Source of the DNA: Thermosulfuriphilus ammonigenes
Lineage (GTDB): Bacteria > Desulfobacterota > Thermodesulfobacteria > Thermodesulfobacteriales > ST65
DNA length: 64,000 nt
NCBI RefSeq assembly: GCF_011207455.1
Contig: NZ_CP048877.1
Span: 2,162,576 to 2,226,575, forward strand
Direction of reading: 5' to 3'
Shown here in pieces: positions 5,255 through 38,393 of the stretch. The position numbers and the translations under genes were made by a program. Numbering within the stretch: the stretch's first letter is position 1; each line of letters starts with the position of its first letter. Under the pieces are notes generated by a model, which had not been told where the DNA came from, made no database searches, and worked only from the letters and a program-made list of their open reading frames with translations.

Positions 5255-5351
5255 CTTTAAAACTATAGGTCCAAAACTTTGTCGAAGACAAGCAACTCTT
5301 TCCTCTAGACCTTGACATTAAAGAGCCCCCTAGTTTTTAATCAAAGAGAGA

Positions 5352-5540
5352 CTCCAGGTGCCCTTAAGGGGTTAAACGGGAAGTCCGGTGCAAGTCCGGC
5401 GCTGGCCCGCAACCGTGACCGGGGACGAACGCCGCTAGGCCCGGAGGGGCAAGCCTTCGGGTGACAGGCCACTGGGGCCGGGAGGCCCCGGGAAGGCGCG
5501 GCAAGTAGGTTGATCCGGAAGCCGGGAGACCGGCCTGGAG
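5352..5540 (+). promoter_or_regulatory. Cobalamin riboswitch 1 (upstream of the Ca-loop protein/exbBD/tonB operon)
   Basis: The cobalamin aptamer is recognisable from AAGTCCGGTGCAAGTCCGGC, GCCCGCAACCGTGA, the GGCCACTGG-type core, GGGAAGGCG and the B12 box GAAGCCGGGAGACCGGCC. The closing P1 helix is CTCCAGG (5352-5358) with CCTGGAG (5534-5540). A GC-rich hairpin (about 5548-5556 with 5570-5579) follows as a possible expression platform, but it has no U tract. Start codon control or Rho-linked control of the downstream operon is likely. The core is almost identical to the second copy at 9338-9527. Confidence 0.95.
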
Positions 5541-5685
5541 ACCTTCTGGGGCGGACTTCGGGGCTTCCTGTCCGCACCCTGGAAACCCTCCTTCTCTTTC
5601 AGGAAGGCCCCAGGCGAGCCCCAAAAGATTCTCTGGTGTAATTTTTATAAAATTCGTGTTATCAAAAGAGGCAAGGAGGGCAGGG

Positions 5686-6966
5686 ATGAGGGGCATTCTT
5701 CTTTGGGGGCTGATCCTTTTTTCTCTTTCGATAATTGGGTCTTCGGCCTGGGCGGTTCAGGTCTGCCGGAGCCTGGATGAAGATGGCGATGGTCGTCCGG
5801 ATCGCTGGGAGTATTTCTTCGGAGGGAAGGTGGTGCGCATAGAGAAGGACTCCAGCGGCGATGGCCGGGTTGACCAGGTGGTCCTCTTCAGAGATGGCCG
5901 CCTGGTGAAGAAAAGGCTTGATCCAGATGGAGATGGTTTCTTTGAGGTTGAGGTTTTCTACAGTGCCGAAGGACGCCGTCAAAAGGTAATAAAAGTCTCT
6001 GATGTCCCGCCCAAAAAGGTGATTTTTATTTACGACCGGAGTGAGCAGATCCGCGAGATCAAGAAAGACATGGACGGAGACGGCTCTCCTGAGGAGATAA
6101 GCTTTTACCAGGGGGGACGGCTGCTGAGGACCTTAAAACACAGGGAGCAGGGAATGGAGGAGACTTTCTTTATGGGGGAGGAGACCAAGGTCACCCAGGA
6201 TAAAAACGGGGATGGGCGCCCGGAGGTTGTCGCTTTCTATCGTCGGGGCCAGCTAGTTCGTCTCCTCCAAGACAAAGATAACGATGGATACCTGGAAACC
6301 AAAGTCATCTATCAGGGAGGTGAGGTCAGAGAACTTTGGCGAGATTTAGATAAAGACGGCCGTTTTGAATTTCGTCTCACCTACGGGCGGGGTGAGCCGG
6401 TCAGGGCGGAAATAGACAAGGATGCCGATGGGAGGCCGGACATCAGGGAGATTTATTCCAAAGGTCGTCTTAAAGAACGCCTTCGTTTAGTTAAAGGACG
6501 GATAAAAGTTAGGGAGATATATGACGCTGGCAGACTAAAGCGACTGGAGAGAGATAGGGATGGTAACGGTTCCCCAGATGAGGTGGCCTTCTACCATCAG
6601 GGCCGGATATCTGAATTCCGATATTTTGATTCTTGCGGAGATCTTCGGGAAAGGCGTATCTATGGCCCCGGGGGAGAGGTAGTCAAAATTGAGCAGTGGC
6701 GTAAGGAGGGGCACATTACCTGGCATCTTAAGGCCGGAGAGCTCTTAAGGGCAGAGATAGATCAAGATGGCGACGGCTCTCCGGAGATCTGGTATCGGTA
6801 TCGGGAGGGAGAGCTAGAGAAGGTGGCCCGAGACACCGATGGAGACGGCCGTCCGGATCGCTGGGAGACTTATCAGGGGGGCCAGGTCTGTCGTTTGGAG
6901 CAGGATCTCAACGGCGACGGCCGGATAGATCTTGAAGACCACTTTCTCCCTGGAGGACAAAGATGA
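5686..6966 (+). CDS. Secreted calcium-loop (EF-hand/dockerin-like) repeat protein
   Basis: A 426-residue protein with a signal peptide (MRGILLWGLILFSLSIIGSSAWA) and about a dozen D-x-D-x-D-G-x-x-[DE] loops (DEDGDGRPD, DPDGDGFFE, DMDGDGSPE, DKNGDGRPE, DTDGDGRPD, DLNGDGRID and others). The loops are separated by short beta-type units of the pattern F/Y-x-x-G-x-x-V-R. The loops are expected to bind calcium; the rest resembles tandem beta-hairpin repeats. The start is the ATG at 5686 after AAGGAGG; an upstream in-frame GTG lacks a signal peptide fit. Its stop overlaps the exbB start (ATGA). The location under a cobalamin riboswitch and with exbBD/tonB suggests a periplasmic or surface part of corrinoid uptake. 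That is inference; I know of no such family member with a proven role. Confidence 0.85.
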   Translation: MRGILLWGLILFSLSIIGSSAWAVQVCRSLDEDGDGRPDRWEYFFGGKVVRIEKDSSGDGRVDQVVLFRDGRLVKKRLDPDGDGFFEVEVFYSAEGRRQKVIKVSDVPPKKVIFIYDRSEQIREIKKDMDGDGSPEEISFYQGGRLLRTLKHREQGMEETFFMGEETKVTQDKNGDGRPEVVAFYRRGQLVRLLQDKDNDGYLETKVIYQGGEVRELWRDLDKDGRFEFRLTYGRGEPVRAEIDKDADGRPDIREIYSKGRLKERLRLVKGRIKVREIYDAGRLKRLERDRDGNGSPDEVAFYHQGRISEFRYFDSCGDLRERRIYGPGGEVVKIEQWRKEGHITWHLKAGELLRAEIDQDGDGSPEIWYRYREGELEKVARDTDGDGRPDRWETYQGGQVCRLEQDLNGDGRIDLEDHFLPGGQR

Positions 6967-7577
6967 TCTCCTTTCTGGCCAAAGGAGGGCCACTAATCAT
7001 CCCTATTGTCATCTCTTCCGTCTTGGCCCTAGCCATTTTTCTGGAAAGGCTGGTCCGCCTTCATCAGGCCCGGTGTCGGGATCATGGTCTCATCGAGAGA
7101 GTCTATGCGGCCATCATCCGGGGGCGGATTGATCAGGCCCGTAAGGAGACAGCGGCCGAGCATAGCTCGGTGGCCCGGGTGCTTGATGAAGGACTGTCGG
7201 TGTGCTGTAGAGATAGGCGAACCATGGAAAACGTTTTGGCCCACGCTATTGAGCAGGAGGGCCGTCGTCTGTCTCGGTATCTTGGTACCCTGGCCACCAT
7301 TGCCAACATAACCCCCGTGACGGGACTTTTAGGTACAGTCCTGGGGATGATTAAGGCCTTTATGGCCATCGAACGCCTAGGGGGTAAGGTTGATGCTTCG
7401 GTGCTTGCTGGAGGTATCTGGGAGGCCATGTTGACCACGGCTGTGGGACTTTCTGTGGCCCTGCCGGTAATTGTGGCCTACTCCTATCTCAGTGGTCGGC
7501 TGGCGGCTCTGGAATCAGAGATGGAAGAGGCAGCCATTTGGTTTATCAAGGCCATTGAGGAGCGAGAACATGATTAG
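6963..7577 (+). CDS. exbB: ExbB/TolQ/MotA-family proton channel protein
   Basis: A 204-residue inner-membrane protein that, with ExbD, turns the proton gradient into TonB movement. It has a hydrophobic N-terminal segment (IIPIVISSVLALAIFLERL), then the conserved ExbB core TLATIANITPVTGLLGTVLGMIKAF and GGIWEAMLTTAVGLSVALPVIVAYSYL. The start overlaps the stop of the repeat protein by ATGA, and exbD overlaps its end by 8 bases, so the four genes form one tightly coupled operon behind the cobalamin riboswitch. Confidence 0.95.
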   Translation: MISFLAKGGPLIIPIVISSVLALAIFLERLVRLHQARCRDHGLIERVYAAIIRGRIDQARKETAAEHSSVARVLDEGLSVCCRDRRTMENVLAHAIEQEGRRLSRYLGTLATIANITPVTGLLGTVLGMIKAFMAIERLGGKVDASVLAGGIWEAMLTTAVGLSVALPVIVAYSYLSGRLAALESEMEEAAIWFIKAIEEREHD

Positions 7578-7980
7578 AAGAAGGCCTTCTTACCGCCGTC
7601 TTCCTGAGATCCAGATGCCCCTTACGGCCCTAATAGATATTGTCTTTCTCCTCTTGATCTACTTTCTCCTGACAGCCAATTTTCTCACCCAGGAGGGGAT
7701 AAATATCAAACTCCCTCGGGCTCATTCCTCTTCTCCTCAGCTGGACAGACCAGTGACCATTTTTGTTGATCAAAGCGGAAGGCTATTTTGGAAAAAAGAA
7801 CCGGTAACCGAGGCCGAACTCCTTGAACGCCTCAAGCGGGCCCTCAGCCGGTCTCCTGACAGAGCAGTTATTATCAAGGCCGATCGAGACGTTCTCCTCG
7901 AACGGGCGGTGAAGGCCATGGATCTGGCCCGGGCCGCCGGGGCCAGAAGACTGCTTTTAGCTACGGAAAGGCCGAGATGA
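7570..7980 (+). CDS. exbD: ExbD/TolR-family protein
   Basis: A 136-residue protein with one N-terminal membrane helix (PLTALIDIVFLLLIYFLLTA) containing the conserved proton-relay Asp, and a periplasmic domain ending DLARAAGARRLLLATE, as usual for ExbD. The ATG at 7570 is chosen; it overlaps exbB by 8 bases, and the longer upstream frame is a shadow within exbB. It overlaps tonB by ATGA. Confidence 0.95.
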   Translation: MIRRRPSYRRLPEIQMPLTALIDIVFLLLIYFLLTANFLTQEGINIKLPRAHSSSPQLDRPVTIFVDQSGRLFWKKEPVTEAELLERLKRALSRSPDRAVIIKADRDVLLERAVKAMDLARAAGARRLLLATERPR

Positions 7981-8699
7981 ACACCTTTGATCTCCAAAAC
8001 GAGAGAGATCATCTCATCTGGGTCTTTTTGCTCCTCTCGGCCCTCATCCACACCCTGATTCTTATCTCCGTTCCCCGCCTAAAGAGGGCAGAGGAAGAGA
8101 AATTCTTTGAAGTCAATCTGGCCCCGGTTCTCCCTTCTTATGAGGAGGTTATAGCCCCGCCTGATCTGACTTCGGGCTCCAGGATACCCCTTACGGCTCC
8201 AGTGTCCGAGCCTCTGGCTCGGACCTATGAAGCGATCCCCGAAATTCCCCCCAAACTTCAAACCCCTGAGGAGCCTTCCCCTGACCTTCAAGGCCTTGAC
8301 CTTCGTCCCCTTAAGCCCCTTACCAGGCCGGGTTCGGTAAAGACTTTATCCAGGAAAGAAACCGTCCTGAGAGGTTCTAGATCAGTCCAGACCTCCAGTT
8401 CCCCTTCTTCGCCCCTTAGGAATTACTTGGCCCTTATTCGAGATCGGGTGGAGGCGGCCAAAAGATACCCTTTGGTTGCCCGGATGAGGGGAGAGGAGGG
8501 GAGCGTCAGGGTGGCCTTTTCCATATCTCCCCGCGGAGAGCTTCTTACTCTCGAGCTCCTGAAGAGCTCAGGTCATCGCCTTCTTGATCAGGCGGCCCTC
8601 TCAGCTATCAAAAAAGCCGCCCCCTTTCCCCCTCCGCCTCCGCCGTATGAGCAGAAAGGCCTTAGGCTTTTTCTTAAATTAAATTTTCAGTTGAGATAA
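7977..8699 (+). CDS. tonB: TonB-type energy transducer
   Basis: A 240-residue protein with an N-terminal membrane helix (about residues 13-32), a Pro-rich periplasmic linker (residues ~45-150), and a C-terminal TonB domain: YPLVARMRGEEGSVRVAFSI, SSGHRLLDQAALSAIKKAAPFPPPP, LFLKLNFQL. It transmits force to outer-membrane TonB-dependent receptors. No receptor gene (btuB) is in the window, so it must energise a receptor encoded elsewhere, probably for a corrinoid given the riboswitch. Confidence 0.95.
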   Translation: MNTFDLQNERDHLIWVFLLLSALIHTLILISVPRLKRAEEEKFFEVNLAPVLPSYEEVIAPPDLTSGSRIPLTAPVSEPLARTYEAIPEIPPKLQTPEEPSPDLQGLDLRPLKPLTRPGSVKTLSRKETVLRGSRSVQTSSSPSSPLRNYLALIRDRVEAAKRYPLVARMRGEEGSVRVAFSISPRGELLTLELLKSSGHRLLDQAALSAIKKAAPFPPPPPPYEQKGLRLFLKLNFQLR

Positions 8700-8749: not shown

Positions 8750-9277
8750 ATGGCTGAGAGGTTAATTTCAGCGCCGAAGCCGAGGCTTGAGGCCTCAGCC
8801 TGCCATCTTGATCGGCCTTGCTACCGGGTGGTGGCCACTGTTCCAGAGGATATAAGGGAAGTTATGCCCTATGTGAATGCCGTCTCTCAGGTCCTTCTCT
8901 ACGAACCCGATGAGCCGGTGATCATCTTTCGTCTTTTGGGGTATCGGGTGGCTTTAAGGCCCCGGGAGATCACCGTAGGTACGGTGGCTGATTGGGAAGA
9001 GGCCCAGAGGGCCCTTAGTGAGGTGGTGGAATATCTCAACAAGATCTGGGCCGAGCGTCAAAAGATATCTCCTGACACGAGGCCCAAGAGACGGCCGCCG
9101 GCCCTGGAAATCTATAAGCTTCTTCCCCGAACAAATTGCGGCCAATGCGGGGAGGTATCCTGTCTGGCTTTTGCCACCAAACTGGCCCTGGGAAAGCTGG
9201 AACTTGAGGCCTGTGAGCCCCTTAACAAAGATGTCGAGGCCCGAAAGAGGCTTCTTAAGCTTATAGGGGCTGATTAA
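8750..9277 (+). CDS. 4Fe-4S cluster protein of the AcsC/RnfB N-terminal type
   Basis: A 175-residue cytosolic protein. The first ~115 residues have no assigned function. The C-terminal part carries a C-x2-C-x4-C-x16-C motif (TNCGQCGEVSCLAFATKLAL), the 4Fe-4S fold found at the N-terminus of the corrinoid iron-sulfur protein large subunit AcsC and in RnfB. The ATG at 8750 is preferred to an upstream in-frame TTG. It sits between the tonB operon and the second cobalamin riboswitch, just ahead of acsE/acsV. A role in electron transfer to a corrinoid protein fits but is not shown. Confidence 0.75.
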   Translation: MAERLISAPKPRLEASACHLDRPCYRVVATVPEDIREVMPYVNAVSQVLLYEPDEPVIIFRLLGYRVALRPREITVGTVADWEEAQRALSEVVEYLNKIWAERQKISPDTRPKRRPPALEIYKLLPRTNCGQCGEVSCLAFATKLALGKLELEACEPLNKDVEARKRLLKLIGAD

Positions 9278-9337
9278 AGATTCATTTTTCTTGCCTTTGG
9301 CGGTGTTTCATCGTATTTTCCCTGGGAAAAGACTTGG

Positions 9338-9527
9338 CCTTCAGGTGCCCCCTGGGGGAGAATCGGGAAGTCCGGTGCAAGTCCGGCGCTGGCCCGCAAC
9401 CGTGACCGGGGACGAACGCCGCTAGGCCTGGAGGGCAAGCCTCCGGGTGACAGGCCACTGGGGCCGGGAGGCCCCGGGAAGGCGCGGCAAGTAGGTTGAT
9501 CCGGAAGCCGGGAGACCGGCCTGAAGG
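9338..9527 (+). promoter_or_regulatory. Cobalamin riboswitch 2 (upstream of acsE-acsV)
   Basis: The same cobalamin aptamer as at 5352-5540, differing at only three positions over about 160 bases of core (one C/T, one single-base deletion, one T/C), all in one hairpin and all compatible with pairing. The closing P1 helix has a different sequence: CCTTCAGG (9338-9345) pairs with CCTGAAGG (9520-9527). It is followed by a strong hairpin (9539-9548 with 9564-9573) and a smaller one (9576-9581 with 9591-9596) before the acsE ribosome binding site. Confidence 0.95.
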
Positions 9528-9638
9528 TCTGTTTTAGAGGAAGCGGGGCTTCGAGGCTTCTGGCCTCGTTTCCGAGAAGGGTCTTTTATCCCCTTCCGGA
9601 AACCCCCCTTGATCCCAAAAAACCATAAGGAGGGAGTT

Positions 9639-10532
9639 ATGTCTGGCAAGGTAGTGTGTATAGGAGAGAGCATTAACATTATGTCTCGGAGTATAGGTCG
9701 GGCGATGAGGGAGAGGGATCCAGATCCTATTCGTCGTATGGCGCGTGAGGAGGTGGAGTTAGGGGCGGATTATTTAGATTTGAATATAGGTCCGGCGAAG
9801 AAGGATGGTCCGGAGTTAGCGTCGTGGATAGTGGAGGTAGTGGAGGGTGAGGTGGATGTACCGATATCGTTAGACACGACGAATCCTGAGGCGATGGTAG
9901 CAGGGATTAGTGCTTCTCGTCGGAAGCGTATATTGATGAATTCGATATCGGCTCAGCCTGAGCGTATGGAGAGGTTGATACCGGTTGCGGCGGAGAGTGG
10001 TGTGGATGTGGTAGCGCTTTTATGGGGGCCTGAGGGGATGCCTCGTGATGCGAATGAGCGGGCGGCGATGGCGGTGGATTTGATGATGAGGTTGAATGAG
10101 GCTGGTGTACCGAATGAGCGGATATGGTTTGATCCGATAGCGACGCCGATAACGTTGGGAGCGGATCAGTTATCGTATGGTTTTGAGTTTTTATCGATGT
10201 TGCCGGAGATAGCGCCTGGTGCGAAGAGTACGGTGGGTTTATCGAATGTATCGAATGGGGTATCGCGTCATTTACGTCCGTATTTAGATCGTGTTTATTT
10301 GATGATGTTGATGAAGTATGGGATATATTCGGCGATATTGAATGTGTATGACAAGGAGTTAGTGGAGATAGCGAAGGGTGAGCATCCTGATTGGGTGAAG
10401 TTAGTGCATGACATGATGGATGGTGATGAGCCAGATCCTAGTAGTTTGAGTGAGAAGGAGTTAGAGATATACAAGACTGTTCGTGTATTGATGGGTAAGA
10501 CTATTTTTTCTGAATCCTGGTTGGAACTCTAG
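9639..10532 (+). CDS. acsE: Methyltetrahydrofolate:corrinoid/iron-sulfur protein methyltransferase
   Basis: A 297-residue pterin-binding TIM-barrel enzyme of the Wood-Ljungdahl pathway. It moves the methyl group of methyl-tetrahydrofolate to the cobalt of the corrinoid iron-sulfur protein. Seen: IGESIN, LGADYLDLNIGPAKKDG, DVPISLDTTNPEAM, NSISAQPERM, WFDPIATPITLG and STVGLSNVSNGV, all typical. It is slightly longer than the ~262-residue Moorella enzyme. The ATG follows AAGGAGGG; an earlier in-frame ATG at 9609 lacks family similarity. Its codon use is unlike every neighbour: Ala nearly always GCG, Leu TTA/TTG, Ile ATA/ATT, and C only about 13% of bases in sampled stretches against about 40% G. 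The bias stops near base 10510. Confidence 0.93.
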   Translation: MSGKVVCIGESINIMSRSIGRAMRERDPDPIRRMAREEVELGADYLDLNIGPAKKDGPELASWIVEVVEGEVDVPISLDTTNPEAMVAGISASRRKRILMNSISAQPERMERLIPVAAESGVDVVALLWGPEGMPRDANERAAMAVDLMMRLNEAGVPNERIWFDPIATPITLGADQLSYGFEFLSMLPEIAPGAKSTVGLSNVSNGVSRHLRPYLDRVYLMMLMKYGIYSAILNVYDKELVEIAKGEHPDWVKLVHDMMDGDEPDPSSLSEKELEIYKTVRVLMGKTIFSESWLEL

Positions 10533-38295: not shown

Positions 38296-38393
38296 GGAAG
38301 CGCCAGGGGCACTGGTGGCCCCCCCGGACTTCAAATCCGGTGTGCCGTCTGAGAAAGGCGGCAGGTGGGTTCGATTCCCATGCGCTTCCGCCA
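38296..38393 (+). tRNA. selC: tRNA-Sec (anticodon TCA)
   Basis: A 98-base tRNA with an 8-base-pair acceptor stem GGAAGCGC/GCGCTTCC, encoded CCA end (38391-38393), extended D stem GGGGC/GCCCC, anticodon stem CCGGA/TCCGG with loop CTTCAAA (anticodon TCA at 38331-38333, reads UGA), and a long variable arm (TGCCGTCT/AGGCGGCA). The long acceptor stem and variable arm identify selenocysteine tRNA. It shows the organism decodes UGA as Sec, which supports the three in-frame TGA genes at 43.5-45.2 kb. Confidence 0.98.

What the first reader, a model, noticed from the sequence alone, without database searches (positions are those of the whole stretch)
5352..8699. Cobalamin-controlled operon with a secreted calcium-loop repeat protein plus ExbB-ExbD-TonB
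A riboswitch precedes four overlapping genes: a signal-peptide protein with about twelve D-x-D-G-D-G-type loops, then a full TonB energising complex, without any TonB-dependent receptor. The repeat protein is the first gene and translationally coupled to exbB, so it is probably a working part. It could be a periplasmic or surface element in corrinoid capture, or a stabiliser of a receptor in hot, calcium-rich vent water. I know of no described role for such a protein in B12 uptake.
Basis: partly seen in the sequence, partly recalled or inferred. Interest (0 to 1): 0.72.

Follow-up and report, generated by a model that had tools for sequence, protein, structure and literature searches.

The report
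TonB motor with calcium-loop beta rod
Many sulfur-metabolising bacteria make their TonB uptake motor together with an undescribed exported protein, predicted to be a long, calcium-braced beta-sheet rod, and in this heat-loving species the whole set is placed under a vitamin B12 switch, so a basic nutrient-import machine seems to have an overlooked fourth part.

Summary
A cobalamin riboswitch (5339-5552) precedes four overlapping genes: a 426-aa Sec-exported repeat protein ("REP") with exactly 12 DxDxDG loops on a 24-residue period, then ExbB, ExbD and TonB. This is the genome's only TonB system. The BtuB-like receptor lies elsewhere, behind its own cobalamin riboswitch. REP-ExbB-ExbD-TonB is not a local oddity. 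Of 99 distinct Desulfobacterota REP loci, 98 contain ExbB, 91 of them directly after REP, and 51 of 75 long loci also hold a TonB-dependent receptor. REP-linked ExbBs form one clade apart from ordinary ExbB and TolQ, although one genus in that clade has lost REP. A cobalamin riboswitch controls REP operons in only about four independent lineages; most others sit with TonB receptors, cobalt/nickel-type, BtuCDF-type or CobN genes. AlphaFold (pLDDT 93) gives one continuous meandering beta-sheet, like OspA's single-layer sheet. So REP is best read as a periplasmic, calcium-stabilised rod that is a standing accessory of a Desulfobacterota TonB motor, not a B12-capture protein or a vent adaptation. 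Its mechanical role is inferred. I found no description of it in the open papers searched or in curated families.

The parts
5339..5552 (+). Cobalamin riboswitch aptamer (RF00174)
   Evidence: cmscan 98.2 bits, cut-off 31.5; one of six in the genome
5586..5680 (+). Possible expression platform: CCCTCCTT (about 5586-5593) complementary to the ribosome-binding site AAGGAGGG (about 5673-5680); suggests translational control
   Evidence: fold and inverted-repeat search; fold z-score not significant, so suggestive only
5686..6966 (+). REP: signal peptide plus 24-residue calcium-loop beta-hairpin repeats (12 DxDxDG loops), 426 aa
   Evidence: AlphaFold model m60d10b42f316 pLDDT 92.6, all beta
6963..7577 (+). 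ExbB of the REP-linked clade
   Evidence: Pfam MotA_ExbB 7.7e-31; tree
7570..7980 (+). ExbD
   Evidence: Pfam ExbD 5.1e-30
7977..8699 (+). TonB, the only strong TonB of the genome
   Evidence: Pfam TonB_C 4.7e-17; genome search
9326..9538 (+). Second cobalamin riboswitch, ahead of corrinoid methyltransferase (AcsE-like) and AcsV-like genes; same regulon, not part of the operon
   Evidence: cmscan 101.7 bits; NCBIfam

Best explanation
The operon encodes a four-part variant of the TonB motor. ExbB, ExbD and TonB are the ordinary energy-transducing complex. REP is exported by Sec into the periplasm and folds into one long, continuous meandering beta-sheet, a rod of 34 strands and roughly 16 nm by my estimate of 0.48 nm per strand, stiffened by about a dozen calcium ions bound in loops along it. 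Most likely it works as a scaffold or strut next to TonB: it keeps the motor in register with outer-membrane receptors, or bridges it to them across the periplasm. In this genome the riboswitch switches the only TonB motor and its rod on when cobalamin is scarce, together with BtuB, BtuFC, CbiK, CbiL, CobN and CbiZ genes. Shown: gene order, conservation, clade specificity, riboswitch, loops. Predicted: fold, periplasmic location, calcium binding. Inferred: the scaffold function.
For: 98 of 99 distinct REP loci contain ExbB; 91 have it within 700 bases directly downstream on the same strand; of 77 loci with 3 kb downstream, 72 have ExbD and 74 TonB. 48 of 49 REP-linked ExbBs form one clade (SH-aLRT 82; 96 for the 44 that include the window), apart from 10 ExbBs of TonB systems without REP and from TolQ-like proteins; 2 label changes against 21.8 for shuffled labels. 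30 of the 33 ExbBs scoring above 250 bits with the REP-clade profile have REP beside them, against only 3 REP-linked ones among the many below. Calcium-loop residues are the most conserved in the family: D359, D363, D383, D387, D391, D407 and D415 are invariant in 45 sequences. AlphaFold pLDDT 92.6, beta only; best structural matches are OspA single-layer sheets, Z about 10. TonB receptors lie in 51 of 75 long REP loci.
Against: Three genomes of one genus have a REP-clade ExbB-ExbD-TonB operon with a receptor and BtuFCD-like genes but no REP, so REP is not indispensable for the motor. Some REP proteins have only 250-300 residues and 4-7 loops, too short to span the periplasm. No contact between REP and TonB, ExbD or a receptor was tested. 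Calcium binding is inferred from motif and fold only. OspA-like matches have high rmsd over the whole length (about 15), so they show the architecture, not a family.
Confidence: 0.55

Rival explanations
1. REP is a periplasmic binding or buffering protein for the transported substrate (corrinoid, nickel, cobalt or haem), handing it from receptor to inner-membrane transporter.
For: Operons often include receptors and metal or corrinoid transporters and chelatases; the loops bind divalent cations by motif.
Against: The loops are classical calcium types; the substrate contexts differ widely (corrinoid, DUF4198/NikL-like, molybdopterin-like) while REP stays with ExbB rather than with one substrate; 21 long loci already hold BtuC/BtuF-like genes.
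Confidence: 0.15
2. REP is a calcium-dependent sensor or latch: calcium loading or tension on the sheet tells ExbBD-TonB when an outer-membrane receptor is engaged.
For: Tight pairing with one ExbB clade and first position in the operon.
Against: No signalling domain; a continuous repeat rod is an unusual sensor; calcium in marine periplasm is probably saturating (general knowledge).
Confidence: 0.12
3. REP is a general envelope or surface protein (adhesin-like, as in the Lsa25.6 family), merely co-transcribed with exbBD-tonB.
For: All 45 members give weak matches to the Lsa25.6 adhesin model; no anchor domain fixes its place.
Against: 51 bits against a cut-off of 150 for the window protein; no secretion gene in the operon; near-exclusive linkage to one ExbB clade across many families.
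Confidence: 0.13

Closest known systems
TonB-ExbB-ExbD energy-transducing system
   Same: All three components present and in the usual order.
   Different: A fourth gene, REP, leads the operon and marks a separate ExbB clade.
Vibrio TonB2 system with TtpB, TtpC and TtpD (PMC6957404)
   Same: A TonB motor that needs extra co-encoded proteins, proposed there to act through protein-protein contacts; TtpB2 and TtpD2 are essential for uptake in V. vulnificus.
   Different: TtpB has a leucine zipper and TtpD TPR motifs (as described in that paper); REP is an all-beta calcium-loop repeat protein.
Borrelia OspA single-layer beta-sheet; Rhs/YD and MORN beta-hairpin repeats
   Same: Long meandering antiparallel sheet built of hairpins.
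   Different: REP adds a DxDxDG loop in most repeats; sequence identity only about 6-16%; no shared function implied.
Lsa25.6 family (Leptospira adhesin, NF050087)
   Same: Similar repeat sequence; weak hit in all 45 REP members.
   Different: Far below the family cut-off (51 against 150 bits); no ExbB link known to me.
Cobalamin-riboswitch regulons of delta-proteobacteria (Rodionov et al. 2004, PMC545781)
   Same: B12 elements ahead of cbiK-cbiL-btuCDF-type operons, as in this genome.
   Different: The cobalamin passages shown to me name biosynthesis, BtuCDF-type transport and nrdDG targets, not exbBD-tonB or a repeat protein; figures and supplements not read.

Membership tests
TonB energy-transducing system | ExbB, ExbD and TonB C-terminal domains over curated cut-offs, co-encoded | tested here: met
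   MotA_ExbB 106.9, ExbD 104.6, TonB_C 62.6 bits, all over cut-off
TonB energy-transducing system | Energises an outer-membrane receptor | not testable with these tools
   Receptors exist in the genome; transport needs experiment
Cobalamin riboswitch RF00174 | Covariance-model score over gathering cut-off | tested here: met
   98.2 against 31.5 bits
Cobalamin riboswitch RF00174 | Response of the downstream genes to cobalamin | not testable with these tools
   Only a possible pairing with the ribosome-binding site was seen
Lsa25.6 adhesin family (NF050087) | Score over curated cut-off of 150 bits | tested here: not met
   51 bits
EF-hand | Pfam EF-hand over cut-off; loop flanked by helices | tested here: not met
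   EF-hand_6 10 bits against 25; model has no helix outside the signal peptide
FG-GAP beta-propeller | Pfam FG-GAP_3 over cut-off | tested here: not met
   25.5 against 26.9 bits for the window protein; 3 of 45 members match at 0.001
MORN_2 repeats (PF07661) | Pfam match over cut-off | tested here: inconclusive
   2 of 45 members match at 0.001, window protein does not; the hairpin architecture is similar
DUF6802 (PF20615) | Pfam match over cut-off | tested here: met
   31 against 27 bits over residues 190-250; 34 of 45 members match; covers only part, function unknown
Vibrio TonB2 accessory proteins TtpB/TtpC/TtpD | Homology to TtpB (leucine zipper), TtpC or TtpD (TPR) | tested here: inconclusive
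   No TPR or ExbB-type match for REP in Pfam; Ttp sequences themselves were not compared

The most novel reading that the evidence does not exclude
REP is a working mechanical subunit of a distinct TonB motor class: a calcium-stiffened, single-layer beta-sheet rod that bridges the inner-membrane ExbBD-TonB motor and the outer membrane. That would be an architecture not described, to my knowledge, for any TonB, Tol or related motor.
Probability: 0.35. Interest if true: 0.78.

Novelty: new variant of a known kind. Interest (0 to 1): 0.6.

Why it matters
How force or energy passes from ExbBD through TonB to the receptor is still debated. A conserved fourth component, predicted to be a long rod, found with one ExbB clade in many families of a phylum and sometimes lost, offers a natural experiment on what TonB needs to cross the periplasm. 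It also assigns a testable role to a protein family that annotation pipelines leave unnamed, and shows a genome whose only TonB motor is placed under cobalamin control.

Tried and rejected
Vent or heat adaptation: rejected, because REP is common in Desulfobacterota that are not vent thermophiles. B12-only function: rejected as a general role; in the loci scanned, a riboswitch lies directly before REP only in the window, L071 and L104 (the last two nearly identical there), and before a receptor-led operon holding REP in L055 and L056; in G345 and G204 a riboswitch lies about 10-12 kb upstream on the same strand among cobalt and chelatase genes. Lanmodulin-like EF-hand protein: only weak hits. 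A first genome-contig scan with the window protein found nothing, and one alignment was too divergent to scan; an alignment of longer relatives worked. Open-access searches for a described protein of this kind found none. A riboswitch alignment with one sequence on the wrong strand was redone. Small DxDGDG proteins without ExbB (such as L057, L058, L060) were judged a different family.

Full report
WHAT IS THERE. The window lies in a single-contig genome of 2,287,345 bases. A cobalamin riboswitch at 5339-5552 (98 bits) is followed by REP (5686-6966), exbB (6963-7577), exbD (7570-7980) and tonB (7977-8699), each overlapping the next by a few bases. Pfam confirms ExbB, ExbD and TonB. REP starts behind a clear ribosome-binding site, has a Sec signal peptide without a lipobox, and carries twelve D-x-D-x-D-G loops on a 24-residue period; shuffled sequence gives 0.03 on average. 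Between aptamer and start codon, CCCTCCTT can pair with the ribosome-binding site AAGGAGGG, which suggests translational control, though the fold as a whole is not unusually stable.

THE REGULON. The genome has six cobalamin riboswitches. They precede this operon; a receptor whose best solved relative is BtuB; CbiK, CbiL, BtuF and BtuC genes; CobN with a radical-SAM protein and CbiZ; an AcsE-like corrinoid methyltransferase with AcsV; and a porin-like barrel. The genome has three ExbB-family proteins: this one, a TolQ beside TolR and TolA, and a MotA. It has one strong TonB. So the riboswitch controls the only TonB motor, which must also serve three receptors that have no cobalamin riboswitch of their own.

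CONSERVATION. REP relatives were found in about 30 of 395 Desulfobacterota genomes, spread over many families, and in 80 named loci of public genomes, mostly titled as Desulfobacterota or Deltaproteobacteria and none from another named phylum below 'Proteobacteria'. The scan patterns came from this phylum, so absence elsewhere is not shown. After removing duplicates there are 103 loci. Of 99 with enough downstream DNA, 98 contain ExbB and 91 have it directly after REP; ExbD and TonB follow in nearly all complete loci; 51 of 75 long loci include a TonB receptor. Neighbours fall into several substrate types: DUF4198/NikL-like genes, BtuC/BtuF-like ABC genes, CobN or CbiK.

A DISTINCT ExbB CLADE. 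48 of 49 REP-linked ExbBs group together, apart from ExbBs of TonB systems without REP, some from the same genomes, and from TolQ (quick tree, SH-aLRT 82 at the base, 96 for the set of 44 with the window). The outlier, L042, has a different gene order. With a profile of this clade, 30 of 33 ExbBs above 250 bits have REP next door; the other three belong to one genus and sit in receptor-BtuFCD-ExbB-ExbD-TonB clusters without REP. REP is thus ancestral to the clade or nearly so, and can be lost.

RIBOSWITCH LINK. A cobalamin riboswitch directly precedes REP in the window, in L071 and in L104, and precedes a receptor-led operon containing REP in L055 and L056. In the last four a hairpin with a T run follows the aptamer, read by eye from the printed sequence, as expected of transcription attenuators. 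Since L071 and L104 are nearly identical there, this makes about four independent lineages. The link to B12 recurs but is a minority.

FOLD. With 45 sequences AlphaFold gives mean pLDDT 92.6 and pTM 0.72, with 34 strands and no helix beyond the signal peptide. Strand pairs alternate with calcium loops. The best structural matches are OspA variants with extended single-layer sheets (Z about 10), then Rhs/YD and MORN-type hairpin repeats. This points to an extended rod; its length, about 16 nm, is my estimate. Loop aspartates are among the invariant residues of the family. No curated family describes it: Lsa25.6 scores far under its cut-off and DUF6802 covers a part.

MECHANISM. The most economical reading is a periplasmic, calcium-braced rod that accompanies TonB. 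Being tied to the motor rather than to a substrate argues against a substrate-binding role. The Vibrio TonB2 system, where TtpB2 and TtpD2 are essential partners (PMC6957404), is a precedent for extra TonB subunits. How REP touches TonB, ExbD or receptors is unknown.

LIMITS. No experiment, no complex model, a quick tree, E-values relative to small searches, and open-access literature only. Neighbour labels rest on single-sequence searches; representatives were checked with Pfam.

Noticed in passing
window 9640-10530: The AcsE-like methyltransferase gene behind the second riboswitch is strikingly C-poor on the coding strand (GC skew 0.34 to 0.50, against about 0.24 or less around it), as if its codon usage differed from its neighbours.
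   Followed up: partly
window 8750-9274: Small Fe-S (PF04060) protein between the tonB operon and the second cobalamin riboswitch, likely corrinoid/Fe-S related.
   Followed up: partly
L061:1181-2794: A porin-like outer-membrane barrel follows a cobalamin riboswitch in the same genome; a porin under B12 control is unusual.
   Followed up: partly
L062:7171-8910: Membrane protein of 580 aa without any Pfam match, in the riboswitch-led CobN - radical SAM - CbiZ operon.
   Followed up: partly
window 38296-38389: Selenocysteine tRNA gene (76 bits), so this genome probably makes selenoproteins.
   Followed up: no
L212, L213, L214: One genus keeps receptor-BtuFCD-ExbB-ExbD-TonB with a REP-clade ExbB but without REP.
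   Followed up: yes
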